IMG/VR virus record: IMGVR_UViG_3300032271_000272
Span: 1-24,648 of that record
Length of the DNA stretch: 24,648 bases
Reading direction: 5' to 3' (one strand)
From: a virus
Part shown: positions 1,292-22,137 of the stretch, in pieces
Layout: every line of letters begins with the position of its first letter
Position numbering within the stretch: the first letter of the stretch is position 1
Notes under the pieces: model-generated
What the model saw: only the letters and a program-made list of their open reading frames with translations
Database searches by the model: none
What the model was told of the DNA's origin: nothing
Position numbers and translations under genes: made by a program

Positions 1292-2005
1292 TTAGGCTTG
1301 TAGATAGTACTGCTCTAAACGACGCCACCACTGATCTGCCCAATAGTCAAAATCCTCAGGTTTTAGTACAAATTCTTGGTATTGCGGACGGGCCAATGGA
1401 TTGCCCATGTCATCCACAGGTGGTTTTACTGCCATTAAGACAACACCTTTTCGTATGTTAGTTCCATAAACTTCATTGTGTGCCAAGGCATAGGCCACAA
1501 GTTGTAGATAATAATCAGTGATCCATTCCGCTCGCTTGGGCTTGTTGGTCTGTTTGAAGTCCAGGATACTTTGATCTTTTTTGTGTATGCCTACACAGTC
1601 TGTGGTTCCTGCATACAGCTTGGGAAAGTACAAGGGAATCTCTACACCCCAGAACTCATCAACGTTGACAAGTCCGTCCTCGATCACAGTCTGTGCCATG
1701 GCGTGACTTGCCCAGCTATATGGATTTGTACCACGGTCTCGTAGTTCATTATTTTTTACATAATGCTCTAAGTAGGTATGCATTCTAGTTCCGCGGTTGG
1801 CGGCTTCTGTGGTAATTTGCTGTGCTTTGGCATGTCCTACATTCTTGCGCCATTGCTCCAGTGCAGCCCGGCTTTCTTCTGGTTTAGTTCGATCTAGGAT
1901 GGTTGTTACACTAGGAACTCGACTGCCATCTGGAGTAGAATACAGGCGTTTGCCTTCTTCACTGGTACGACTTAATTCATGGTACTGAAATTTTGGGTTA
2001 TACAC
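1292..2005 (-). CDS. PD-(D/E)XK exonuclease, RecB/Cas4-type fold
   Basis: A nuclease of about 237 residues, of a kind common in marine T4-like phages; probably processes DNA ends in recombination, replication or host DNA breakdown. All core motifs are present in order: histidine motif GTRMHTYLEHY, glutamate in WGVEIPLYF, aspartate in GTTDCVGIH, the D-x-K motif ILDFKQTNK, and QLVAYA (QxxxY). It has a single cysteine, so the iron-sulfur cluster of Cas4 and AddB is absent despite the adjacent iscA. Start choice: GTG 2005 follows a GGGGAAAG purine run and overlaps the iscA stop as GTGTATAA. An in-frame GTG at 2026 would add seven residues (MDAGKVF) but has no ribosome site. Translational coupling to iscA is likely. 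Confidence 0.85.
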   Translation of the reverse strand: MYNPKFQYHELSRTSEEGKRLYSTPDGSRVPSVTTILDRTKPEESRAALEQWRKNVGHAKAQQITTEAANRGTRMHTYLEHYVKNNELRDRGTNPYSWASHAMAQTVIEDGLVNVDEFWGVEIPLYFPKLYAGTTDCVGIHKKDQSILDFKQTNKPKRAEWITDYYLQLVAYALAHNEVYGTNIRKGVVLMAVKPPVDDMGNPLARPQYQEFVLKPEDFDYWADQWWRRLEQYYLQA

Positions 2006-2318
2006 GAAAACTTTCCCCGCATCCACAGCGGTCTTTTTCTAAAGGATTGTTAAATTCAAACCCTTCATTGAGGCCTTGGCGCACATAGTCTACCTCAAGC
2101 CCATCTAAATATGCACTGCTTTTAGGATCAACCACAATGACAAATCCATCTTGCTTAACAGCAATATCTTCGGGGTTAACTGTGTCAATATATTCCAACA
2201 CATAGGCCAAGCCACTGCATCCGGTGGTTCTAACACCGAGCCGAATGCCTAGGCCTCGGCCACGCCGAGCTAGATTCTGCTGAATTTTTTTACTGGCTGT
2301 GCTTGTTACGGTAATCAT
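1998..2318 (-). CDS. iscA: A-type iron-sulfur cluster carrier protein IscA (HesB family)
   Basis: A full-length, 106-residue A-type carrier, the same size as bacterial IscA. It accepts iron or Fe-S clusters and passes them to target proteins. The three ligand cysteines are intact: C34 in TTGCSGLAY and C98/C100 in the C-terminal CGCGESF. It resembles E. coli IscA throughout (LARRGRGLGIRLGVRTTGCSG; GLNEGFEF), so it belongs to the proteobacterial ISC branch. ATG 2318 lies inside the tail of the homing endonuclease gene and has GGGAAAG eight bases upstream. It was presumably next to iscU before the endonuclease arrived. No scaffold chaperones or cysteine desulfurase are in the window, so host IscS, HscA and HscB would be needed. 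Confidence 0.95.
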   Translation of the reverse strand: MITVTSTASKKIQQNLARRGRGLGIRLGVRTTGCSGLAYVLEYIDTVNPEDIAVKQDGFVIVVDPKSSAYLDGLEVDYVRQGLNEGFEFNNPLEKDRCGCGESFRV

Positions 2319-3076: not shown

Positions 3077-3454
3077 TTAGCTTTTTTGTTTAGATTTGTA
3101 ATCGGCTATTGCAGCCGAAATAGCGTCCGACGCAAGGATACTACAATGGATCTTAACCGGCGGGAGACTGAGTTCCTCTGCAATCGCAGAGTTCTTAATT
3201 GATCCAGCCTCGTCCAGCGTTTTGCCCTTGACCCATTCTGTGACAAGTGACGATGAAGCGATCGCCGACCCACAACCATAAGTTTTGAATTTTGCATCTG
3301 TGATTATTCCATCCTCTACTTTGATTTGTAATTTCATCACGTCACCACAAGCAGGAGCACCAACCATGCCTGTACCTATAGTGTCGTCTATTTCCATTTT
3401 ACCCACATTTCGTGGATTTTCGTAGTGATCGATTACTTTGTCTGAATAGGCCAT
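3077..3454 (-). CDS. iscU: Iron-sulfur cluster scaffold protein IscU
   Basis: A complete 125-residue scaffold on which Fe-S clusters are built from sulfur supplied by IscS. Every known functional residue is there: C36 and D38 (GAPACGDVM), C61 (TYGCGSAIASSS), H103 and C104 (KIHCSILA), and the LPPVK motif (97-101) that binds the chaperone HscA. The sequence is close to E. coli IscU along its whole length, so it should plug into a host ISC system. The start is ATG 3454 with an AAAGGAG ribosome site. A sigma70-type promoter lies directly upstream (3472-3500), so this gene may be expressed early. Downstream come the homing endonuclease and iscA; upstream is a radical SAM enzyme, a plausible client. 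Confidence 0.96.
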   Translation of the reverse strand: MAYSDKVIDHYENPRNVGKMEIDDTIGTGMVGAPACGDVMKLQIKVEDGIITDAKFKTYGCGSAIASSSLVTEWVKGKTLDEAGSIKNSAIAEELSLPPVKIHCSILASDAISAAIADYKSKQKS

Positions 3455-3515: not shown

Positions 3516-4430
3516 TTAACTAGTAGTATCTTTGGAAATGTTTATTTCACGTTTCCACGGTTTTTTTAGGTCGGTAAATGTAATTAGCTTATATTCGTAA
3601 GTTTCTGGGCAAAATTTACATTGTGGAATTACGTTATCAATTGTATTAAAGAATTCTTCGCCGCGTTCGTCAAACTCATCAATGGTCAATGGACGATAAC
3701 TGTTGAGCAGTTGACGATCTTCGTCTGACATTTCAAATCCAAACTGTTGATCAAATTCGGGCATCAATGCTGCAGGTCCACATTTATAAATTTTACCATT
3801 AATCACATGATAATTTTTGAATTGCCGATAGGTGCAATTTTCGTGGGCAAGATCTGGGTTGCTATTGTACAACTGAAATTTTCCATCTGGCGTTTCTATA
3901 ATGTTACTCTGAACAAAATGGTCATTTAACCAGACATGCACATATACGTTATTATTATCTACAAATTGCCATCTTGATCCCATCCAATGGTCGGGGTCTT
4001 GTGTTTCTTTAATAGGATGAACAAGAAAATTTCTAATACGATTAAAAACGTCCTCACAATCATCGATTGAGTGCAAACTCACACCAACCCAATTTCCGTG
4101 TCCGTTAGCACACACCTCGTACAAACCTTTGACACAGTCTATTCTAGTACCATTACTTTGAATTTGTACTCCGCTGTGATCTGGCCATAACTTGTTTATT
4201 CCACCAAACCAATCTACTATATCAGGATTTAATAGTGGCTCGCCGCCTAGTATAACTGGATGTCTTATGTCAATTTTTTCAGTCCAGCGGCGAAGTGTTT
4301 CTTTATTTTCTTCCCAACTTTGCCAGCCGCTAAATTTATAATTGTTATACCGATTACAACCGCTACAGGTTAGGTTACAAACATTGGTGATGTAGAATTC
4401 TAATCTATCTACTAGTAATCGTGTCGACAT
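3516..4430 (-). CDS. Radical SAM enzyme with four extra C-terminal cysteines (SPASM/twitch-like)
   Basis: A 304-residue radical SAM protein. The cluster motif CxxxCxxC is at C18-C22-C25 (NVCNLTCSGCNRY) and the SAM-binding GGEP at 62-65. Four more cysteines (C199, C217, C271, C274, the last two in PQCKFCPE) could hold an auxiliary Fe-S cluster, as in SPASM or twitch enzymes that modify peptides or other substrates. The substrate is unknown: no precursor peptide or queuosine-type genes are next to it. It sits immediately before iscU in the same direction, which suggests a need for cluster supply during infection. ATG 4430 has no ribosome site; an AGTAAATA element 8 to 15 bases upstream would start the transcript two bases before the ATG. 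Confidence 0.85.
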   Translation of the reverse strand: MSTRLLVDRLEFYITNVCNLTCSGCNRYNNYKFSGWQSWEENKETLRRWTEKIDIRHPVILGGEPLLNPDIVDWFGGINKLWPDHSGVQIQSNGTRIDCVKGLYEVCANGHGNWVGVSLHSIDDCEDVFNRIRNFLVHPIKETQDPDHWMGSRWQFVDNNNVYVHVWLNDHFVQSNIIETPDGKFQLYNSNPDLAHENCTYRQFKNYHVINGKIYKCGPAALMPEFDQQFGFEMSDEDRQLLNSYRPLTIDEFDERGEEFFNTIDNVIPQCKFCPETYEYKLITFTDLKKPWKREINISKDTTS

Positions 4431-10762: not shown

Positions 10763-12172
10763 TTAATTGGCTTTAATTTGGCCTAGTAATTGCTTTAGTT
10801 TAGCACTTTGTACATCTGCAGTGATTTTAGTAGTTTCTTCTCGGTCAGTAAGATTAGCAGGCTCTGTTCCATTAATCATTGTGCTTTTTGCTTTAATACT
10901 GTCTAGCAAGTTACCCTTAGCAAAACTATTAACTGGGCCGGCTTCTTCTCCTGGATCTGTAATACGCATGGTTTCAACATTGTAATCCAAGTCAATCTTC
11001 ATGCCAACACCTGTACTACTACGCGATTTCATACATTGTATTTGATATTTGCCACGCTCACGCATGGCTCTGCTGGTGAAGATACCAAATACGTTATCTG
11101 CTGTGTTGATCTTACTAATACCACCTGAAATATGACTGTGGTCAAATTCAATTTCTTCTACTGCACTACGATTTAACTGCGACGCCGTTACAAATAGCAC
11201 ATTAAGTTCTTTGGCCAAGTTACGCAATTCTTCTGAAACATATTTGTCTTTAACAAACAAGTCATTGGGGCTAACCTTGGCACTTACAGGCATCAATAAG
11301 TCCAAGTAGTCACACATAACAAAATCTACCTTTAATCCTGTTTGCACTTGCACTTCTTTAATGTAACTGCGAATGTCGTTGATGTTGCTCTGTGCAGGCA
11401 AGGCTTTGATACGATACTGTCCGGCTTTCTTGCTAACTAGCTTGACCTTAAGTTCAGTTTGATCAATGTCCTTGCGAATTTCTTTAGTACTCATTCCTGC
11501 CAACATAGCATCTGTTCTTAGGGCACATAGTTCTTCACTAAGTTCTAAACTGATATACACACCACTAAGTCCTGCTTGCAACCAGCTCAATGCTATGTTC
11601 ATCATAACAAGCGACTTACCCGATCCAGAACCACCAGCAAAAATGTTAAGTTCTCCACGGCTGAATCCGCCATACAAGATCTTGTCCATCTGTGGCCAGC
11701 CTGTACTTACTTGTCCACCACTATTAAAATATTTGTCAATACGTAGTCTTGGATCTGCAAAATAATCTGTACCCATATCTTTGGTCAAACTAATTTGTAC
11801 CGCATCTTTAATTAATTTCTCTACGGGATCATACTCGCCTTTTTCCAACAAGTCTGCTGATTTTAGAATTGCACGTTCTAGTTCTTGTCTGCGAGTAAAC
11901 CCCTCGAACTCATCCATAAACCATTCAAAGTGTCCGTCATTTAAATCTGGAATGTTATTAAGTTTAACACCTGTACTGGCACCAATTTGTTCTATTGTTG
12001 GTAGTGTCTTGTGTTGGTCGCTATGCTTGGCAATAAACTCAGCCGCAGATCTTAAACTACGGTCAAAGTTTTCTGGATTATAAATGTTCTGAACACGCAC
12101 ATAACTTTCTGCGTCTTGTAACATCATTTCTAAGAATAGTTTTTGGACCTCAAGTCCGTAGTCTTTTAACAA
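10763..12172 (-). CDS. gp41: Replicative DNA helicase, T4 gp41-like (DnaB family)
   Basis: A 469-residue helicase, nearly the length of T4 gp41 (475). It forms a hexamer on the lagging strand and works with the primase as the primosome. The N-terminal domain (1-130) is helical; the RecA-like motor follows, with Walker A GGSGSGKS (180-187), YISLELSEE, Walker B DFVMCDYLDLL, and the FVTASQLNRSA motif near the end of the motor core. The end of the gene product (LLGQIKAN) is a short polar tail. It starts inside the end of the primase gene (23-base overlap), as expected for two proteins made together. No separate promoter is seen. Confidence 0.95.
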   Translation of the reverse strand: MLKDYGLEVQKLFLEMMLQDAESYVRVQNIYNPENFDRSLRSAAEFIAKHSDQHKTLPTIEQIGASTGVKLNNIPDLNDGHFEWFMDEFEGFTRRQELERAILKSADLLEKGEYDPVEKLIKDAVQISLTKDMGTDYFADPRLRIDKYFNSGGQVSTGWPQMDKILYGGFSRGELNIFAGGSGSGKSLVMMNIALSWLQAGLSGVYISLELSEELCALRTDAMLAGMSTKEIRKDIDQTELKVKLVSKKAGQYRIKALPAQSNINDIRSYIKEVQVQTGLKVDFVMCDYLDLLMPVSAKVSPNDLFVKDKYVSEELRNLAKELNVLFVTASQLNRSAVEEIEFDHSHISGGISKINTADNVFGIFTSRAMRERGKYQIQCMKSRSSTGVGMKIDLDYNVETMRITDPGEEAGPVNSFAKGNLLDSIKAKSTMINGTEPANLTDREETTKITADVQSAKLKQLLGQIKAN

Positions 12173-13112
12173 GTTGTTTTTTCCTTAGTTCTATTTTAAT
12201 TTTACTAGTTTCTTTGGCCTGCATTATAGTTAGCAAAGTTGCTAGTCTACCCCAACGAATTACAGCATCGTTTACATCCTTAACATCTGCAGGCCACTCA
12301 GGCATGCTTACAGCCCATCCTAGTTCTACCGCCCGGTCCACTAACTTCATGCCGGCCTCATCTTGATCTGGCACTACAATCACATCTCGACCTAGACTGC
12401 GTATCAGTCTAGCTTGTGGGTCGTTGATCTCTGCGTGTAGCACTGCCAGTCCATTAATACTGAGTGCATCAAAAACTCCTTCGACTACAATTACTGACTG
12501 CCAATCTGCGCCCTGTAAGTCTGTGCCAAATACATAACCCGGCTGTATATCCTGAATGTATCTAGGTGTGCGATCATCCAAAAATCTTGTTGTGTGCCCT
12601 ACCACTTGATTGTCATGCGTAAATGGAATTACAATGCCAGGACGTGGCATTGTTTTGTATAGGAACGGGTAGTCCATTGGTGCTAACCTCTTACGTAGAT
12701 ATTCTTCTGCCAATTCATTTAGTGGCTGTGTATCTGCTGGCAAGAGCCGATCTTCAAATATAATATTTTGTAATTGGTTGGCAATTGCTTGACGCTCGCC
12801 GAGCAATCCTTCTATACTCTTGTGCTTAAGGCTTTCAAGATTAATGCGTTCAATTTCTTCTTGCGGAACATTCATCCACTGTAGTAATTTACGAGCTTTG
12901 AATGTTAAATTACGGCCTAGTACAAAACTAGCGGTGTATCCGCAATTAAAACAATGCCAAGACCAACTACCGTCGGGTGTGGATTTTATTCCTCCACGCA
13001 TGCGACGATCTTGACTTTCGCCATTGTGCTCGCAACACGGTGCATTAACACTTATCCAACCCGAACTGGTTTGTTTTCGTTTAGCGGGTAAAAAAGAAGT
13101 CACGTCAATCAT
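12150..13112 (-). CDS. gp61: DNA primase, T4 gp61-like
   Basis: A 320-residue primase that makes RNA primers for lagging-strand synthesis. The N-terminal zinc-binding motif is formed by APCCEHNG (C26/C27, H29) and HCFNCGY (C54, C57). The Toprim catalytic domain follows with VVEGVFDALS (E-x-x-x-D) and IVVPDQDEAG (D-x-D). The C-terminus is strongly basic. Overlap with gp41 couples the two. A TTGATT-N17-TATAAT promoter lies directly upstream; its predicted first base is one position from ATG 13112 and there is no ribosome site, so the message appears leaderless. Confidence 0.93.
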   Translation of the reverse strand: MIDVTSFLPAKRKQTSSGWISVNAPCCEHNGESQDRRMRGGIKSTPDGSWSWHCFNCGYTASFVLGRNLTFKARKLLQWMNVPQEEIERINLESLKHKSIEGLLGERQAIANQLQNIIFEDRLLPADTQPLNELAEEYLRKRLAPMDYPFLYKTMPRPGIVIPFTHDNQVVGHTTRFLDDRTPRYIQDIQPGYVFGTDLQGADWQSVIVVEGVFDALSINGLAVLHAEINDPQARLIRSLGRDVIVVPDQDEAGMKLVDRAVELGWAVSMPEWPADVKDVNDAVIRWGRLATLLTIMQAKETSKIKIELRKKQLVKRLRT

Positions 13113-14335: not shown

Positions 14336-14749
14336 TTGATTGGAAAACGTTTTGGTAAATATTGGCACGATATGACTAATGATTTTTTTGAAAAACTAGC
14401 GGAAAAATACCCATTTATAACCTTGTGTGTTTGTGCCACCACAGAATACGTGGGAATTATACAAAATCAAGATGACTATATCACCACTATCTACGACTTT
14501 GGTGCCATTAAAAACGTAGAGGTCAAACAAAAGTTTTTAGAGCTGGCAAATACCTGGTGGTGGGAAAGTAATAGAACCATACCCATCAACATATTCCTCA
14601 AAGAAGACTGGGATCCGTTTAAACCTTATCTGCGTACTTTTACCAACAAAGACTTAGAAATACTTCACGGGCCAGTTTGCAGTCTTAGTGAAATGGGTCG
14701 TAAAAAATCAAAAAGAAAATCTATTACTCTTGTACGCCGGCTTGATTAA
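14336..14749 (+). CDS. Only plus-strand gene: small conserved-type protein of unknown function (137 aa)
   Basis: A 137-residue protein, intact and coding-like: FGKYWHDMTNDFFEKLAEKY, TEYVGIIQNQDDYITTIYDF, LANTWWWESNRTIPINIFL, then HGPVCSLSEM and the basic tail KKSKRKSITLVRRLD. The same pattern occurs in uncharacterised proteins of marine T4-like phages. It reads against every other gene in the window, starting 25 bases from the divergent structural gene and running 26 bases into the mini-DnaE-like gene tail to tail. The start is uncertain: TTG 14336 has no ribosome site, and ATG 14372 would lose the FGKYW block. In front of ATG 14372, GGTAAATA at 14354-14361 resembles the late motif but is also codons. 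Function unknown. Confidence 0.75.
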   Translation: MIGKRFGKYWHDMTNDFFEKLAEKYPFITLCVCATTEYVGIIQNQDDYITTIYDFGAIKNVEVKQKFLELANTWWWESNRTIPINIFLKEDWDPFKPYLRTFTNKDLEILHGPVCSLSEMGRKKSKRKSITLVRRLD

Positions 14750-15302
14750 GTAGATTCATATGCAAGGCCACTAGGGCTGCGTAAGAAATTGCATGGCTTT
14801 TTTTAAATATAAATCCCTTAGAGTCGTTGCCGTCCCAGACTGATTCAAATACTTCTGCCCATGGTCGATTTTGTAAGTGCGCTTTACCAGGACGAATAAT
14901 ACTGATAAATGCAGCCATCCTGGGTATTGAATCGGGTTTCATAGTCTTCAATAATTCAGTATAGTTCCCTATGTGAACTAACTGTTTAGCCCAGGCCGGA
15001 TCTGTCCATAGACGTTCCCATGGTGGTTCTTTAGCAATCATTTCTTCATAGTGTTCTGGACTTTGAATTAACTGATACACCGACATATTCAGCAAGTCAA
15101 TTTTAAAATAGCCCAGTTGTTCTGCTTGCTCATAGTCAATAGCCGCACACTCGTTAACAGGATCATATGGAATGTCTGTAACATACACTCCACTATTATG
15201 ACGACGTACTTGCTCTTGATGCATCTGCCTTGCTGGAGTAGCACGAATCAACTGTAACAATTGATCTCTATCGGCAAAGTCAATGTCAATATCTGCGCTC
15301 AT
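14724..15302 (-). CDS. Miniature DNA polymerase III alpha (DnaE)-like protein
   Basis: A 192-residue protein whose motifs follow the order of bacterial DnaE palm and neighbouring regions with everything between removed. DIDIDFADRDQLLQLI (4-19) matches DnaE PDFDVDF...RDQVI, holding the two palm aspartates (D6, D8). HNSGVYVTDIPYDP (35-48) matches its KHAGGVVI loop. EQLGYFKIDLLNMSVYQLI (61-79) matches GLVKFDFLGLRTLTII with the third catalytic aspartate (D69). MKPDSIPRMAAFISIIRPGK (121-140) matches [20 protein letters not shown], and KKSHAISYAALVAL (167-180) matches NKSHSAAYALVSY. The family normally exceeds 1000 residues, so polymerase activity is doubtful. ATG 15302 is preferred (TAATG with the upstream gene) over TTG 15308. 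Confidence 0.75.
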   Translation of the reverse strand: MSADIDIDFADRDQLLQLIRATPARQMHQEQVRRHNSGVYVTDIPYDPVNECAAIDYEQAEQLGYFKIDLLNMSVYQLIQSPEHYEEMIAKEPPWERLWTDPAWAKQLVHIGNYTELLKTMKPDSIPRMAAFISIIRPGKAHLQNRPWAEVFESVWDGNDSKGFIFKKSHAISYAALVALHMNLLNQAGVQE

Positions 15303-15976
15303 TACCAACCTGCTTTCTGTAGTATATCCTTGGCATACTCTTGATCCGCTGGATAATCTTTAAACTTACGCATCCAAAAGTCTGCATCAATATATGACCA
15401 TATCATTGCTACTTGCGTAGCGTCTAACTCAGCTAAAAACTTTTGTCCTGACTCACTGTTATAAATGATCCACGGACTAATACGTCCAGCACTTACAGCA
15501 TAGACCATGGCATTGGTGTTGCCATAGCGTAGACAATCTTCAGCTGGGTGGCCGGAGTTTTCAGACCAGTCTATACCAAACTCCATGGCACGGGCAAGCG
15601 CATCGTTAACATTCTCCACACGCAGATAATCAGTTAGGTATTCTGTGTAGACAGTATCTTTGGCCCAGTGATCAATCTTTTTGTTTTGTTTCAACACCCA
15701 TTCAACAAACCGTGCTGGATTAACGGCACGGATATCTACACAGTAACGGCCAAACTTAACAAAGGCTTTATAGTAAGGACTGTCGGCAAAGTCTTCAAAT
15801 GTCTTTAGCCGGGCACTGCCCTGTGTAAGCTCGTAGAACTTGAGATAAGCATTAAATCCAAGACGCACCCCTGCTTCATCTCGTTCCTGACGACGACGGC
15901 GCGGCTCGCATGAATGCACCGCAAGACTAGACTCTTTCATAAAGTCTTTCCGACAATACTGACAGGTATACTTCAT
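15302..15976 (-). CDS. Zinc-finger phage protein linked to the mini-DnaE gene (224 aa)
   Basis: A 224-residue protein with an N-terminal C2H2-type zinc finger (YTCQYCRKDFMKESSLAVHS; ligands C5, C8, H21 and C23 instead of the usual second histidine), followed by a basic segment (EPRRRRQERDE) that could contact nucleic acid, then a mostly helical body (KFYELTQGSARLKTFEDFAD, RFVEWVLKQNKKIDHWAKD) and an aromatic C-terminus (WSYIDADFWMRKFKDYP). The pattern is conserved in marine T4-like phages, function unknown. It is coupled to its neighbours by ATGA upstream and TAATG downstream, and lies between helicase and primase genes, so a replication or repair role with the mini-DnaE protein is a reasonable guess. 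Confidence 0.75.
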   Translation of the reverse strand: MKYTCQYCRKDFMKESSLAVHSCEPRRRRQERDEAGVRLGFNAYLKFYELTQGSARLKTFEDFADSPYYKAFVKFGRYCVDIRAVNPARFVEWVLKQNKKIDHWAKDTVYTEYLTDYLRVENVNDALARAMEFGIDWSENSGHPAEDCLRYGNTNAMVYAVSAGRISPWIIYNSESGQKFLAELDATQVAMIWSYIDADFWMRKFKDYPADQEYAKDILQKAGW

Positions 15977-16419
15977 TTTTTAACTTCTTGTCCCAGTTGC
16001 TTAATGTATGCATCTATGTCTTTTTTAGTATTGATTTTGGCCATTAACTCTAATTCATCATCTCGAAGATGCGGATACAGCTCGGCCAACTGTTTACGAA
16101 TACCACCAGCACCGGGTTCTTTTTTCTTGGGAGCAATCCATTGGTGTCGTTGGGTGCCCATACCAGGACTTACGGTTGTAGCTGATAACCATTGTAGTTT
16201 TGGGTGTCGATTTATACTAAAAAAATGTTTGTTTAATCGTTCGTTTGTGGCTATCAAATAAAACTCTTGCAAATCTCTACTGCCTTGCACACTGGATCCA
16301 TAACGAATCATAAGGAAGTTACTGAACTTCTTCTTTTCGTCCACAGTTAGTTCATCGTAGAACGCTCTGTGCTTACGATCAAACTGTGTCATTTCATTGT
16401 TGATACTAAGTTTATCCAC
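15973..16419 (-). CDS. Basic phage protein of unknown function in the mini-DnaE gene group (148 aa)
   Basis: A 148-residue, positively charged protein (FDRKHRAFYDELTVDEKKKF; HPKLQWLSATTVSPGMGTQR; APKKKEPGAGGIRKQLAELY). The second half is helical and lysine-rich, which would suit nucleic-acid binding, but no named domain is recognised. Start GTG 16419 overlaps the TAG of the upstream gene (TAGTG); ATG 16392 is an alternative nine codons in. The end overlaps the zinc-finger gene by four bases (ATGA). The chain of overlaps from 16919 to 14724 indicates a single four-gene unit. Confidence 0.7.
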   Translation of the reverse strand: MDKLSINNEMTQFDRKHRAFYDELTVDEKKKFSNFLMIRYGSSVQGSRDLQEFYLIATNERLNKHFFSINRHPKLQWLSATTVSPGMGTQRHQWIAPKKKEPGAGGIRKQLAELYPHLRDDELELMAKINTKKDIDAYIKQLGQEVKK

Positions 16420-16919
16420 TACCAGGCCTGATTGTAATTTACCACTTCACAGTTGCGACTAATGTCTTTAACAAAATAAACACAGTCGGGTTTTGCACCT
16501 TCACCTACGGGTACACACAACATTTGACCATTTTTAAGTTTAGGAGCATACCAAGTAACTTCTTGATACACATCAATAATTTCAATGTCAAGGAAACTTG
16601 GACGGAAACTACTCAACGGATTAAACTGGAATGCTTTAAATCCACGATCGTTGATGCTAGTCAGCGGCAGCACTTCTAGGTCACCCAAGTCGGGTTCTCC
16701 AATTAGGATTTGCCAGTCTACGGGCATTTTGATTCTATGTTCGCCAATGCGTAGAACCAGGGCAGGGCTTGTAAAACTTTCTAAAAAAATCAACGGAATG
16801 TAATGATAATCTGGATCTTTGGGGTCGCTATTATCAAAAATAGCAAAACGCAGGTCATCTACTTCCTCGGGTAAATGATCTAAATCAAATGGCGTGTTAT
16901 CAAGTGTTAATATTCTCAT
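16419..16919 (-). CDS. Phage protein of unknown function, first gene of the mini-DnaE group (166 aa)
   Basis: A 166-residue acidic protein (FDLDHLPEEVDDLRFAIFDN), with a central stretch HRIKMPVDWQILIGEPDLGD followed by LEVLPLTSINDRGFKAFQFN and a C-terminal block TWYAPKLKNGQMLCVPVGEG. This pattern is typical of a protein conserved in marine T4-like phages, without known role. It leads the four-gene unit that ends with the mini-DnaE gene. The promoter TTGCAA-N16-TATAAT at 16926-16953 predicts transcription starting on the A of ATG 16919, and no ribosome site is present. Confidence 0.72.
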   Translation of the reverse strand: MRILTLDNTPFDLDHLPEEVDDLRFAIFDNSDPKDPDYHYIPLIFLESFTSPALVLRIGEHRIKMPVDWQILIGEPDLGDLEVLPLTSINDRGFKAFQFNPLSSFRPSFLDIEIIDVYQEVTWYAPKLKNGQMLCVPVGEGAKPDCVYFVKDISRNCEVVNYNQAW

Positions 16920-16956: not shown

Positions 16957-18417
16957 TTATTTCCATTCTAATTTTTCTTGTGTAAACGGATAGTTGGCTT
17001 CTTTGTAAAACTGTTTGCGTTTGGTCAAGTGCCGTTTGGCAAACTTGCAGGTGCTAGTTACGTCCCAGATTTGAACATGGTCTTTGTCTTCTGCTTTGCG
17101 TATTCCTCTTCCAATGCTTTGGATGACCCGGACAAAACTTTTACCAGGTTCAACAAGAACAAGATTAAAGATACGGGGTATATTAATACCAACAGCAGCA
17201 ACACCGTAAGTAGCCACAATAATTTTTCCTGTAGCGTCTGCAACTTCATCATATTCATCTTGTCTTGCCTTTGCTTTCGTTGCGCCACTTACCATAACTG
17301 CATTGTCACCCAGGCGTTCTATAATACCTTGCCCTGCAGCAATACGATCAACTAGCACTAGTGTATTACCTGTAGCATTAACCTGTCGAATTAAGTTGGC
17401 AATAGTATCTAACCTGTCGGGTTCTTCCAATAAAAACTTTAATTCACTTTGGTAGTTGGCAAAATCTGCGTGGTCAACCAACTGTACAATATTCACGTGG
17501 CATTGTGCCAATACACCCTGGCTTTGTAATTCGCTAGCACTAAGTCGACCAATCACAGGCCCAAGACTACACTTCAAGGCTTGAAATTCAAATGGTTCTT
17601 TGGGTATAGTTCCTGTAAGGCCCCAACGCAATGGAATACAGCTCATTACACCTGTAAGTAGACTCTTGAGTGCGTCGGCTTTGGCCATATGGACTTCGTC
17701 AACAATGACGCAGACTACATCTTCTAAGAACTCACCTATAGTAACATCACCTACACTGTTCTTTGTGTTCTTAAGTAATATATTTAAACTTTGCCAGGTA
17801 CAAATAGTATGTTGCCGGCCCCACTCCTTGCGATCACCGAAGTAAACACCAACGTCTTGTTGCATGTTGATGTAATCTTTTTCTGTTTGCGTTACCAGAC
17901 TCTTGTTGGGAACAATAACAATGGTTCTACCATAAGGTGCTACTGCGTTTGATAGTGCGGCTGTAATAACAGTTTTGCCTGCGCCTGTGGCAATCTCTTG
18001 AATACATTGCGGAGTTTCAAGGAAGTTATTAATGATTTCAACTTGATAGTCACGTAATGCCATTGGTTGCCCTTCCATTGGATGCCCTTTGGGCCAAGCG
18101 ATGTGACTGAATGTTGATTCTGTTACTTTCTCAAAAGTAAAATTAACGCTGTAATCCCGTTGATCATCTAGGTCAATGTCGTAGTTAAACTTTTCAAGTA
18201 TAGGAATAATCTCTGGTAACAAGTTTACATAAGTGCTACCACCAAGTTGGAAGTAGCTTACTTTACCATCCCAACGTCCAAGGCGGACTGCTGGCAAGTA
18301 ACGGGCACCCGGAACGTCATACTTAAACGCATTAACCAAAGCACGACGAGCATCAAGTTCAAGTCCTTCGATCTTAATGTTTACTTCGTCTTTAATTATG
18401 ATTGTAGCTGTTCGCAT
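16957..18417 (-). CDS. uvsW: Recombination DNA helicase UvsW
   Basis: A 486-residue superfamily 2 helicase, close to T4 UvsW (503). It unwinds branched DNA and RNA-DNA hybrids, drives branch migration and helps the shift from origin- to recombination-dependent replication. The N-terminal substrate-binding region (1-95, GARYLPAVRLGRWDGKVSYF) is followed by LRDYQVEIINNFL, Walker A ATGAGKT (143-149), the DEVH box (240-243), GLTGTIP, and motif VI QSIGRGIRKAED near the end. All motor motifs are intact. ATG 18417 has no ribosome site; TTGACT-N18-TACACT upstream predicts a transcript starting exactly at the A of ATG. In T4 this gene is late; here the promoter looks host-type. Confidence 0.95.
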   Translation of the reverse strand: MRTATIIIKDEVNIKIEGLELDARRALVNAFKYDVPGARYLPAVRLGRWDGKVSYFQLGGSTYVNLLPEIIPILEKFNYDIDLDDQRDYSVNFTFEKVTESTFSHIAWPKGHPMEGQPMALRDYQVEIINNFLETPQCIQEIATGAGKTVITAALSNAVAPYGRTIVIVPNKSLVTQTEKDYINMQQDVGVYFGDRKEWGRQHTICTWQSLNILLKNTKNSVGDVTIGEFLEDVVCVIVDEVHMAKADALKSLLTGVMSCIPLRWGLTGTIPKEPFEFQALKCSLGPVIGRLSASELQSQGVLAQCHVNIVQLVDHADFANYQSELKFLLEEPDRLDTIANLIRQVNATGNTLVLVDRIAAGQGIIERLGDNAVMVSGATKAKARQDEYDEVADATGKIIVATYGVAAVGINIPRIFNLVLVEPGKSFVRVIQSIGRGIRKAEDKDHVQIWDVTSTCKFAKRHLTKRKQFYKEANYPFTQEKLEWK

Positions 18418-20514: not shown

Positions 20515-20963
20515 ACTTGTATGTCTTCCATTCCTGCGGTACGTAGACGAACAATGTGGCCGCTCATCCAAGATTTACTATCTAGGCCTTTCATAATGCC
20601 TAACCAACGATTACGCAATAATGCTACTTCATTGATAATGGTTTCAAAATCAATAACTTCGTCTTCGCCATCCACATATTTTTCAGCATCTCGGCTAGTT
20701 AATGCACGAGCATAACCTTCAAGATACTTCTGGAAATGACGGCGACGTATTTTGCGTAACTGTATGTTAAGATGATTTAGAATTGCTTCAATTTCTTGTA
20801 GTTGGTTAAACCTATGCTCAGTAATGCCAGGAAGTGCGGTAATATTTTTCTCCACAAGTCCGCCGATACGTACATCACGTTTGGCGTCCTCCAGCTCACC
20901 TTCGTAGTGTGCTATAAAGTCAGGAATATTGCCAAGATCAGCAACTACTTTACTATACCACAT
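20511..20963 (-). CDS. Helical T4-like phage protein, possibly a UvsY-type recombination mediator
   Basis: A 150-residue, all-helical, charged protein (IPDFIAHYEGELEDAKRD; HRFNQLQEIEAILNHLNI; RRRHFQKYLEGYARALTSRD). The second half, YVDGEDEVIDFETIINEV followed by LLRNRWLGIMKGLDSKSW and IVRLRTAGMED, recalls the UvsY C-terminus of cyanophages (acidic DED-type block, helix, then IMKSL and a W-x-I-x-x-x-I pattern). UvsY loads UvsX onto gp32-coated DNA, and both partners are encoded nearby in the same direction. Length (150 against 137 in T4) fits, but the similarity is weak, so it may be a separate conserved family. It has AAAGGA upstream of ATG 20963 and overlaps the radical SAM gene by 11 bases. 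Confidence 0.6.
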   Translation of the reverse strand: MWYSKVVADLGNIPDFIAHYEGELEDAKRDVRIGGLVEKNITALPGITEHRFNQLQEIEAILNHLNIQLRKIRRRHFQKYLEGYARALTSRDAEKYVDGEDEVIDFETIINEVALLRNRWLGIMKGLDSKSWMSGHIVRLRTAGMEDIQV

Positions 20964-22137
20964 ATGAATCCTTTATATTTAACCAGTGCAACATACTTGT
21001 TGGGAAAATATCAAATGATAAATTTCTACGAGCGACAAACTCTTTTATATAATGGGCACATTGTTGACGTTGCGTTTCTTGACACGGTATCTGCATATTT
21101 GAAATAATTTCATCACGTAAACTAATGTTGGTATTGTTTAAAATATTAATTAATCGATCTTTGGTATCGTCGTCAAGCACATTTACAGATAAAAAATCTG
21201 GGTCGGTACAAAATTGAAATTTTACAGGAATATCACTAAACGTATTGACAAATTCAGCAAGACCCAACACAGTCAGATTGCTTATCACTGAATGAAATTT
21301 GATGGAAAAACCGGCTTCAATTAGCAATTTTAAATTGGTTAGAAAGCTTTCGTAACTGTTGCCGTATCTGTTAAATTCATATAGCTTACCACAAGTCTCG
21401 GCACTGACATATACTTGTAAATTGTCACGCTGTTTAATTTGACCAATTTGTTTTTTTAAACGTTTGGTGTCAACTCCGAGTCCGGTATAAAAACTAGTAC
21501 GCGAGGCACAATTAACACTGTTTAGTAACTTTGGAAACTCATTATACAAAAATGGCTCACCGCCTGAAAATTGAACATTATCCACTGGCCCTATATGAGC
21601 TATTTCGTTGTTTATTGTTTTGACAACGTCGGAGTCAAAATAATCACGATGGCTTATTTTAGCTATGATATGATCAATTGGTGTCAATTGAAAGCGATCT
21701 TGATTATCGAAATAACTACCATTTTCTTTTATATCTCTATACCAGGCCGAACTATACTGTTTACAACAATATGAGCAGGTTAAATTACAAGTTGATCCTA
21801 AATTGATATTTAAGTGTGTTGGCGTTGATTCGTTGAGGTTACTTGGTATTGTCTCATAGCTTTTCATCACTGTACGCCTACTTGAAAACCCATTGCTTTC
21901 TGCTTTCCAACAACTATCATAACAACTGGACACTGGTTTATTTGCCAACATATCAACACGATCTTGGTGTAACATTGGGGTATTAAATAGTTGTCCGGGA
22001 TTTTGTTTTAACCAGCTGATATTAATTTTTTCAGGAGTGGCTGAACAACATGAATATGATAATTGTTTTTCTAAATCAACAGACAGCCAAGTAAATTTTT
22101 GACTGCAATAAAAATTAGTTAAAGGATCAAACAACAT
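20953..22137 (-). CDS. Radical SAM protein with cysteine-rich N-terminal (twitch-like) region
   Basis: A 394-residue radical SAM protein. The cluster motif CxxxCxxC is at C117-C121-C124 (GSTCNLTCSYCCKQY) and FSGGEPF at 190-196 binds SAM. Unusually, five cysteines precede it (C11, C30, C31, C72, C76), suggesting an N-terminal extra Fe-S or twitch-like domain; radical SAM proteins of this type are known from uncultured marine phages, with unknown substrates. The gene is AT-rich compared with uvsX (39 of 120 G/C over 21601-21720 against 28 of 60 at 22921-22980), which hints at later acquisition, yet it is locked into the recombination operon by TAATG upstream and an 11-base overlap downstream. 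Confidence 0.85.
   Translation of the reverse strand: MLFDPLTNFYCSQKFTWLSVDLEKQLSYSCCSATPEKINISWLKQNPGQLFNTPMLHQDRVDMLANKPVSSCYDSCWKAESNGFSSRRTVMKSYETIPSNLNESTPTHLNINLGSTCNLTCSYCCKQYSSAWYRDIKENGSYFDNQDRFQLTPIDHIIAKISHRDYFDSDVVKTINNEIAHIGPVDNVQFSGGEPFLYNEFPKLLNSVNCASRTSFYTGLGVDTKRLKKQIGQIKQRDNLQVYVSAETCGKLYEFNRYGNSYESFLTNLKLLIEAGFSIKFHSVISNLTVLGLAEFVNTFSDIPVKFQFCTDPDFLSVNVLDDDTKDRLINILNNTNISLRDEIISNMQIPCQETQRQQCAHYIKEFVARRNLSFDIFPTSMLHWLNIKDSYVV

What the first reader, a model, noticed from the sequence alone, without database searches (positions are those of the whole stretch)
14724..15302. Mini-DnaE: a 192-residue protein keeping the ordered palm motifs of DNA polymerase III alpha
Five segments align in the same order with E. 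coli DnaE from the palm aspartates to the KSHSAAY region: the D-x-D (D6, D8), the KHAGGVVI-like loop, the third aspartate in YFKIDLLNM (D69), the PDS...IIRPG block, and KKSHAISYAAL. The three putative metal-binding aspartates are kept, while PHP, most of the fingers, the beta-binding and tau-binding regions are gone. A T4-like phage has its own family B polymerase, so this may be a repurposed polymerase core: a decoy binding the host clamp loader or helicase, a primer-end binder, or a tiny nucleotidyl transferase. The frame is intact and coupled to three other unknown genes, so it is not a decaying pseudogene.
Basis: partly seen in the sequence, partly recalled or inferred. Interest (0 to 1): 0.75.

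Follow-up and report, generated by a model that had tools for sequence, protein, structure and literature searches.

The report
Half of a split phage polymerase
This small phage gene appears to make the metal-binding half of a stripped-down bacterial-type DNA polymerase whose other half is encoded far away in the genomes of related phages; the arrangement was described in 2021, and I found no experimental test of what it does.

Summary
Minus-strand ORF 15302..14724 (192 aa) is a DNA polymerase III alpha (family C) palm/fingers fragment: its model (pLDDT 91) aligns end to end with E. coli DnaE 399-781 (Z 8.1) and with 3e0d (Z 9.4); the next unrelated row is 3.3. One detail is off: E. coli D401/D403 correspond to D4/D6, not D6/D8. 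D4, D6, D8, K67 and D69 are kept in 150 of 150 distinct homologues.

The interpretation needs correction. A second ~175-aa gene carries the GxGRGS NTP-binding half (DnaE 277-393) and stops just before the motif with which this protein begins. By comparing hit lists, 62 of 63 phage records with the C-half also carry the N-half. A family B polymerase is found in 10 of 10 isolate records examined. Iyer et al. 2021 (PMC7824862) already described this split minimal Pol III in 'group 2.2' jumbo phages. Added here: the exact break, the co-occurrence count, abundance in environmental phages, and both halves in 141-kb phages. Most likely the halves assemble in trans into a thumbless Pol III-type nucleotidyl transferase beside the family B replicase. 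A decoy role is unsupported. Binding and activity are untested.

The parts
14724..15302 (-). C-terminal (metal- and template-binding) half of a split minimal DNA polymerase III alpha subunit, 192 aa
15276..15293 (-). DIDIDF (residues 4-9): D4, D6, D8 = E. coli DnaE D401, D403, D405
   Evidence: all three kept in 150 of 150 distinct full-length homologues
15189..15203 (-). RHNSG (residues 34-38; H35, G38) = E. coli KHAGG (H511, G514)
15090..15107 (-). FKIDLL (residues 66-71): K67 and D69 = E. coli K553 and D555
   Evidence: 150 of 150
14883..14936 (-). PDSIPRMAAFISIIRPGK (residues 123-140) = fingers segment [18 protein letters not shown] of E. coli DnaE (ends at residue 642)
14778..14807 (-). 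FKKSHAISYA (residues 166-175), containing H170 = E. coli H760
15302..15976 (-). conserved upstream neighbour, phrog_11058, unknown function; its stop overlaps the C-half start (TAATG)
15973..16419 (-). conserved neighbour, phrog_11758, unknown function
16419..16919 (-). conserved neighbour, phrog_11279, unknown function
14336..14749 (+). convergent gene overlapping the C-half 3' end, phrog_11637, unknown function
12150..13112 (-). DNA primase (T4 gp61-type context)
10763..12172 (-). DnaB-like replicative helicase (T4 gp41-type context)
16957..18417 (-). DNA helicase, UvsW-like by position and neighbours (PHROG name: DNA helicase)

Best explanation
The gene encodes the C-terminal half of a split, minimal family C DNA polymerase. 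Shown by sequence and model: it carries the three palm carboxylates, the KxD lysine and shortened fingers with the RP.K and KxxH motifs, but nothing that aligns with thumb, PHP, clamp-binding or tau-binding regions; and a second, distant gene in related phages carries the complementary NTP-binding GxGRGS half, which ends just before this half begins. Inferred: the two proteins bind each other and rebuild one Pol III-type nucleotidyl transferase active site in trans. Inferred, less sure: without thumb or clamp binding the enzyme is distributive and adds short tracts, most likely primer extension or gap and recombination-linked fill-in beside the family B replicase, since the C-half gene usually lies next to primase and helicase and the N-half gene lies shortly upstream of the clamp loader in several phages. 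Estimates: half of a split Pol III alpha 0.95; the halves assemble into one active site 0.8; the complex makes DNA in vivo 0.55; short-tract role as stated 0.4.
For: Complementary structure: C-half model residues 1-191 align with 2hnh 399-781, N-half model residues 73-173 with 2hnh 277-393: five residues between, no overlap. Sequence: most N-halves end ...EFLR or similar and stop, and C-halves start with a short leader and DIDID, matching E. coli [24 protein letters not shown]. N-half profile hits E. coli DnaE chains in PDB at E 8.8e-7 and Pfam DNA_pol3_alpha matches 14 of 14 members at E<=1, best 5.3e-12. Co-occurrence: 62 of 63 phage records with the C-half have the N-half (lists compared by hand). 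Of 8 IMG/VR contigs of 149-462 kb picked because they had one half, 7 hold both. D4, D6, D8, K67, D69 and R137 in 150 of 150 distinct C-halves; GxGRGS in 101 of 101 distinct N-halves (the GRGSS stretch was part of a retrieval pattern). PolB in 10 of 10 isolate records. Independently proposed by Iyer et al. 2021 (passages read).
Against: No direct evidence of binding or activity. Thumb and most of the fingers are gone, which could abolish DNA synthesis. The two genes are not linked (11 to about 224 kb apart in the phage records compared, up to about 280 kb in contig G007), so there is no operon support. The co-occurring phages are related, so the counts are not independent. Most N-half matches cover only the last ~100 residues (4 of 67 records reach 80% cover; 44 of 63 with another query), and N-half residues 1-72 have no structural counterpart. 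The N-half is mostly helical, where Z under about 13 can be a common arrangement by the tool's own note; its best Z is 12.6, and Foldseek's E is only 0.11. The window is a 24.6-kb fragment and shows neither N-half nor PolB. G006, a 320-kb contig, has the N-half but no C-half. The one phage record without an N-half is titled 'complete genome'. A DnaQ-type exonuclease was found in only 7 of 18 records.
Confidence: 0.8

Rival explanations
1. The C-half acts alone as a small nucleotidyl transferase or primer-end binder, and the N-half has a separate job.
For: The model is confident as a single chain (pLDDT 91.4); the genes are far apart; contig G006 has one half only.
Against: The NTP-binding GxGRGS element of this fold is missing from the C-half and present in the other protein; 62 of 63 records keep both; the break points are complementary.
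Confidence: 0.1
2. A catalytically dead decoy or adaptor that binds host Pol III partners (clamp loader, clamp, helicase) to seize the host replisome.
For: Polymerase-like fold in phages that have their own replicase; usual position next to primase and helicase.
Against: The aligned range stops at DnaE 781 and starts at 399, leaving out the PHP, clamp-binding and tau-binding regions (recalled); the metal-binding residues are the ones kept (150 of 150).
Confidence: 0.05
3. The halves assemble, but the complex is a structural or regulatory subunit of the family B holoenzyme, or makes something other than DNA chains (for example nucleotide addition to a protein or RNA end). This shares the assembly step with the best explanation, so the two overlap.
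For: No thumb and reduced fingers make processive templated synthesis doubtful; found together with PolB in 10 of 10 isolate records.
Against: Fingers residues P123, R137, P138, K140, H170, Y174 remain invariant (H170 and Y174 partly forced by a retrieval pattern); no direct test.
Confidence: 0.25

Closest known systems
Split minimal DNA polymerase III alpha of 'group 2.2' jumbo phages (Iyer et al. 2021, PMC7824862); PHROG 11778 (C-half) and PHROG 11127 (N-half)
   Same: C-half family of the phages concerned (E 2.6e-55), distant N-half gene and family B polymerase in relatives. That these two PHROGs are the paper's two proteins is my reading: the passages seen give no sequence, but Atu_ph07 is named there as a group 2.2 member
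   Different: The window comes from an environmental virus contig; relatives include 141-kb phages, below the jumbo size on which the paper is based
Cellular DnaE (E. coli and others in PDB)
   Same: Palm fold, DxD and KxD motifs, KHAGG-like loop, RPGP and KSH motifs
   Different: No counterpart of PHP, thumb, most of the fingers or anything after residue 781; catalytic core divided between two genes
Full-length 'DnaE-like' polymerases of other phages (for example Streptomyces phages)
   Same: They are the next tblastn hits of the C-half after its own family, at E 0.7 and above
   Different: Annotated as DnaE-like Pol III alpha; a wide gap in score (E 4e-22 to 0.7 among the rows listed) separates them from the mini family
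Intein-split DnaE of cyanobacteria (recalled)
   Same: DnaE encoded in two separate genes
   Different: Break in another place (recalled: before the KSH motif), and no intein family was found in either half

Membership tests
Split minimal Pol III alpha (Iyer et al. 2021) | C-terminal Mg2+- and template-binding half as a stand-alone protein | tested here: met
   metal binding itself is inferred from the conserved residues
Split minimal Pol III alpha (Iyer et al. 2021) | NTP-binding N-terminal half encoded by a distant gene | tested here: met
   met in relatives only: 62 of 63 phage records and contig G002, whose C-half is 84% identical; the 24.6-kb window record itself has no match
Split minimal Pol III alpha (Iyer et al. 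2021) | Phage also encodes a family B polymerase | tested here: met
   met in relatives only: 10 of 10 isolate records and 6 of 8 IMG/VR contigs, the two misses being 111- and 149-kb contigs; not in the window fragment
Split minimal Pol III alpha (Iyer et al. 2021) | Lacks the other Pol III domains (PHP, clamp-binding, tau-binding) | tested here: met
   aligned ranges are only 277-393 and 399-781 of E. coli DnaE; N-half residues 1-72 are unaligned and too few for a PHP domain (size recalled)
Split minimal Pol III alpha (Iyer et al. 2021) | The halves reconstitute an active enzyme | not testable with these tools
   proposal of the paper; no complex prediction or assay available
Full-length C-family polymerase (DnaE/PolC) | PHP domain, thumb and clamp-binding region in one chain with the palm | tested here: not met
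   192 aa
Full-length C-family polymerase (DnaE/PolC) | Three catalytic palm carboxylates | tested here: met
   D4, D6 and D69 (plus D8); closeness in space implied by the fold match, not measured
Intein-split DnaE | Split intein segments at the junction | tested here: not met
   Pfam scans of 14 C-halves and 14 N-halves list no intein family; the 14 N-halves end within 0-2 residues of the EFLR position and the C-halves have at most a short leader before DIDID

The most novel reading that the evidence does not exclude
Two phage proteins encoded far apart assemble in trans into a single thumbless Pol III active site, giving a family C polymerase of about 365 aa in all (smaller than any I know of), used in T4-like phages of ordinary and jumbo size as a second, specialised DNA synthesis enzyme beside the family B replicase.
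Probability: 0.5. Interest if true: 0.7.

Novelty: new member of a known kind. Interest (0 to 1): 0.42.

Why it matters
A two-gene family C polymerase of about 365 residues would show how little of Pol III is needed for catalysis, and would bear on whether minimal forms preceded the large cellular enzyme, as Iyer et al. propose. The halves are small and are present in cultured phages of E. coli, Klebsiella and Pseudomonas, so the idea is directly testable. Both halves in 141-kb phage records, and many hundreds of environmental hits, show that the system is not tied to jumbo genomes.

Tried and rejected
Lone mini-DnaE: not favoured, since 62 of 63 phage records with the C-half carry the complementary N-half. 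Pseudogene or chance ORF: rejected (dN/dS 0.067; invariant motifs). Intein or trans-splicing: rejected. Fusion or adjacency of the halves: looked for and not found; no locus held has both (175 loci with a C-half; 111 with an N-half, two of which are the full-length polymerase genes L131 and L133 found by the N-half profile alone). Flanks were mostly 4-6 kb, up to 12 kb. The C-half profile did not pick up those two full-length genes at E 1e-3 (13.8 and 4.4 bits), so a divergent fused form could be missed; BFVD lists an unnamed 374-aa viral protein (A0A249Y020, Foldseek E 1.4e-3, probability 1.00) of about the right size for a fusion, which I could not examine. DnaQ exonuclease as a fixed partner: not supported (PF00929 in 7 of 18 records). 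Cellular origin: one genome-contig scan gave 12 relatives among 56 candidate stretches, 11 of them titled MAG and one an uncultured-bacterium bin; their mixed labels suggest misbinned phage DNA, not checked. A looser tblastn (E<=10) added no new full-cover record: 63 of 142 C-half records reach 80% cover, and the listed weak hits of both halves are mainly annotated DnaE-like phage polymerases, with SMC/SbcCD-like and unannotated rows among the weakest (capped lists).

Weak or contrary numbers: see the observation check and the Against line. hhalign of the N-half against E. coli DnaE: probability 82%, E 1.1e-5. Best Foldseek E of the C-half 1.1e-3 with TM 0.49 and rmsd 7.3.

Literature: searches turned up no paper testing the split enzyme (listings; searches had no hits). 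Of the papers whose passages I read, only PMC7824862 describes the split. PMC6102473 (Atu_ph07) and PMC11242549 (AP-J-162) report annotated Pol III subunits; PMC11348598 and PMC12926913 mention none of this in the passages seen. PMC5167688, listed, was not read.

Bias and dropped rows: the homologues counted come from capped lists (best 80 of 204, best 80 of 597) plus named phages; 176 ORFs, 152 distinct, 2 short ones dropped. The pattern contains the FKKSH..Y stretch and that the GRGSS stretch, so invariance there is partly forced; D4, D6, D8, H35, K67 and D69 lie in no retrieval pattern. The 67-record N-half list is the 62 plus OP172633 (its match lies in a 910-aa ORF), MT837767, PQ571309, PQ571310 and one record never listed; the last four were not examined. 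In one search, 144 of 200 pairs were dropped.

Full report
What is there. The finding's coordinates hold a minus-strand gene of 192 codons plus stop, ATG at 15302 and stop ending at 14724. Its ATG overlaps the stop of the upstream gene by one base, TAATG. dN/dS between the window gene and its 80 nearest IMG/VR relatives, and among these, has a median of 0.067 over 56 usable pairs of 200, so the gene is under purifying selection; dS is near saturation in the pairs kept.

Is it Pol III? PHROG 11778, 'DNA polymerase', matches residues 3-187 at E 2.6e-55, and phrog_405, a 1190-position family of the same name, matches residues 49-142 at 8.5e-7. Pfam's Pol III fingers model is below its cut-off for this protein (E 0.036) but hits 10 of 14 diverse members at E<=1, best 3.3e-5. 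A single-sequence search of PDB found nothing. A 14-sequence profile has Pol III alpha chains as its best seven of ten hits, but only at E 0.05-0.33; in the two alignments shown the pieces are colinear and include DIDID, the RPGP segment and KSHA. The AlphaFold2 model from 59 sequences has mean pLDDT 91.4 and pTM 0.82. Foldseek's ten best PDB chains are Pol III alpha (best E 1.1e-3, probability 1.00; 7pu7 named as such). VIA-align 2 places model residues 1-191 on 3e0d_A 460-838 (Z 9.4, rmsd 3.7, 189 aligned) and on E. coli 2hnh 399-781 (Z 8.1, rmsd 3.8, 185 aligned); the first row that is not a polymerase is Z 3.3. A looser tblastn of the RaK2 relative finds, after its own family, DnaE-like polymerases of Streptomyces phages at E 0.7 and above. 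Together this is a family relation, not chance.

Which residues. In E. coli DnaE, PDFDVDF starts at 400, KHAGGVVI at 510, VKFDFLG at 552 and NKSHSAAY at 757. So D401, D403 and D405 are D4, D6 and D8; K553 and D555 are K67 and D69; H511 is H35; H760 is H170. That D401, D403 and D555 are the catalytic carboxylates is recalled. Among 176 detected C-half ORFs (152 distinct, 150 of them full-length), D4, D6, D8, H35, G38, P45, K67, D69, L71, W95, P123, R137, P138, K140, H170 and Y174 are kept in 150 of 150. A retrieval pattern contains the KSH region, so H170 and Y174 are partly forced; the aspartates are in no pattern. Closeness of the aspartates in space was not measured.

What is missing. The aligned range ends at DnaE 781, so clamp-binding, OB and tau-binding parts (boundaries recalled) have no counterpart; nothing before 399 is present; about 80 residues between DIDID and RHNSG (the thumb, recalled) and about 90 between RPGK and KKSH are missing, from the positions.

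The other half. phrog_405 also hits a second short ORF in 5 of the 6 records searched, all but the 111-kb contig G001. It is 169-180 aa in these five, and its last part reads ...WGVGRGSSVASYVLYxLGVHxxDSLxYNLDIxEFLR-stop, with variation. E. coli DnaE reads ...[46 protein letters not shown]: the N-half stops at about the FL of FLNPER, and the C-half resumes at DIDID. The N-half profile finds PDB DnaE at E 8.8e-7; Pfam DNA_pol3_alpha matches 14 of 14 members at E<=1, best 5.3e-12; PHROG 11127 'DNA polymerase' matches at 4.8e-36. Its model (pLDDT 88.0, pTM 0.73) fits 2hnh 277-393 with residues 73-173 (Z 10.1, rmsd 2.5, 98 aligned; best Z 12.6 on 5lew); residues 1-72 are unaligned, Foldseek's E is only 0.11, and for helical folds such Z can be unspecific by the tool's note, so the sequence match carries weight here. 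The halves map to adjacent, non-overlapping stretches of one chain with five residues between them.

Co-occurrence. tblastn finds the C-half in 63 phage records, all at 80% cover or more (raising the limit to E 10 leaves 63 at that cover). Comparing accessions by hand, 62 of 63 also have an N-half match, mostly over its last 100 residues. The exception, PP728206.1, is titled 'UNVERIFIED ... complete genome' but has 109,507 bases, while RaK2 of the same genus has 345,809. Of 8 IMG/VR contigs picked because they had one half, 7 hold both; G006 (320 kb) has only the N-half. These phages are related, so the counts are not independent. The halves are distant: 11 kb apart in Slicko01, 15 kb in XacN1, 33 kb in RaK2, about 224 kb in Phosso by record coordinates. 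No locus held has both.

Setting. The usual order around the C-half is UvsW-like helicase, three unknown genes, C-half, a convergent unknown gene, one more gene, primase, helicase, with exceptions: in Phosso the upstream helicase is many genes away, XacN1 shows no annotated primase or helicase within 5 kb downstream, and Slicko01 has a clamp-loader subunit upstream instead. Among loci with room, phrog_11058 is found upstream in 73 of 73 close, 75 of 78 intermediate and 7 of 10 annotated phage loci, and the phrog_11637 gene in 70 of 70, 71 of 71 and 7 of 10, each time convergent; of 11 MAG loci it is convergent in 10 and on the same strand in 1. Primase is found in 40 of 40, 46 of 46 and 6 of 9 loci of 8 kb or more, not corrected for room. 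The N-half gene lies three or four genes upstream of an annotated gp44-type clamp loader in SCTP-2, XacN1, Atu_ph07 and 121Q, 4 of the 6 annotated N-half stretches viewed (not in the stretches shown for the Vibrio phage and Slicko01). A family B polymerase is found in 10 of 10 isolate records and 6 of 8 IMG/VR contigs, the misses being G001 (111 kb) and G003 (149 kb). A DnaQ-like exonuclease is found in 7 of 18 records. The window, a 24.6-kb virus record, holds no PolB and no N-half; G002 (176 kb, C-half 84% identical) holds both.

Mechanism. Shown: sequence, fold, complementarity, co-occurrence and conservation. Inferred: the halves bind and make one nucleotidyl transferase site, the N-half giving the NTP-binding GRGS loop and the C-half the metals and part of the fingers. 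With no thumb and no clamp-binding part it should be distributive. Its usual place by primase and helicase favours primer extension or fill-in next to the family B replicase, or synthesis in recombination-dependent replication. A clamp-loader decoy would be expected to keep the partner-binding regions, which are the ones without counterpart.

Known or new. Iyer et al. 2021 (passages read) state that group 2.2 jumbo phages carry, beside the family B enzyme, a minimal Pol III alpha split into separate proteins from distant genes, an N-terminal NTP-binding and a C-terminal Mg2+- and template-binding part, likely to reconstitute complete enzymes, perhaps for one strand or repair. The window gene fits that family. 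The N-half match there is the weakest: tblastn E 6e-4, profile E 3.9e-17 over its last part. My searches found no experimental test.

Noticed in passing
window 14336-14749 (+): A convergent gene of unknown function (phrog_11637) overlaps the C-half 3' end here and is convergent in 70 of 70 close and 71 of 71 intermediate loci with room (10 of 11 in MAG loci), in an otherwise mostly one-directional block.
   Followed up: partly
window 15302-15976 (-): Upstream neighbour phrog_11058 begins with a CxxC...HxC stretch resembling a zinc finger (Pfam C2H2 E 0.14, below cut-off); a possible extra DNA-binding subunit.
   Followed up: no
window 3077-3454 (-), 1998-2318 (-), 3516-4430 (-), 20953-22137 (-): ORFs that look by eye like IscU and IscA iron-sulphur assembly proteins and two radical-SAM-like proteins in one phage segment; names recalled from motifs, no search run.
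   Followed up: no
records NC_042013.1 (L117) and OQ508956.1 (L118): The family B polymerase match lies in two open frames in these phages (578 and 418 aa; 578 and 322 aa).
   Followed up: no
L127, L128, and by eye L092-L094, L098, L099, downstream of the N-half: The N-half gene is followed by a small unknown gene and a GroES-like co-chaperonin gene (annotated in 121Q and the Vibrio phage; by eye).
   Followed up: no
L294-L305: The only relatives found in genome contigs are 12 contigs of metagenome bins labelled as assorted bacteria and archaea, probably misbinned phage DNA.
   Followed up: no
phrog_7513 (461 positions): A PHROG of unknown function whose C-terminal end (396-443 of 461) weakly matches the N-half (E 0.0065); it may be a larger form of the same split.
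   Followed up: no
BFVD A0A249Y020 (374 aa): Unnamed viral protein matched by the C-half model (Foldseek E 1.4e-3, probability 1.00); its length is about that of both halves together.
   Followed up: no
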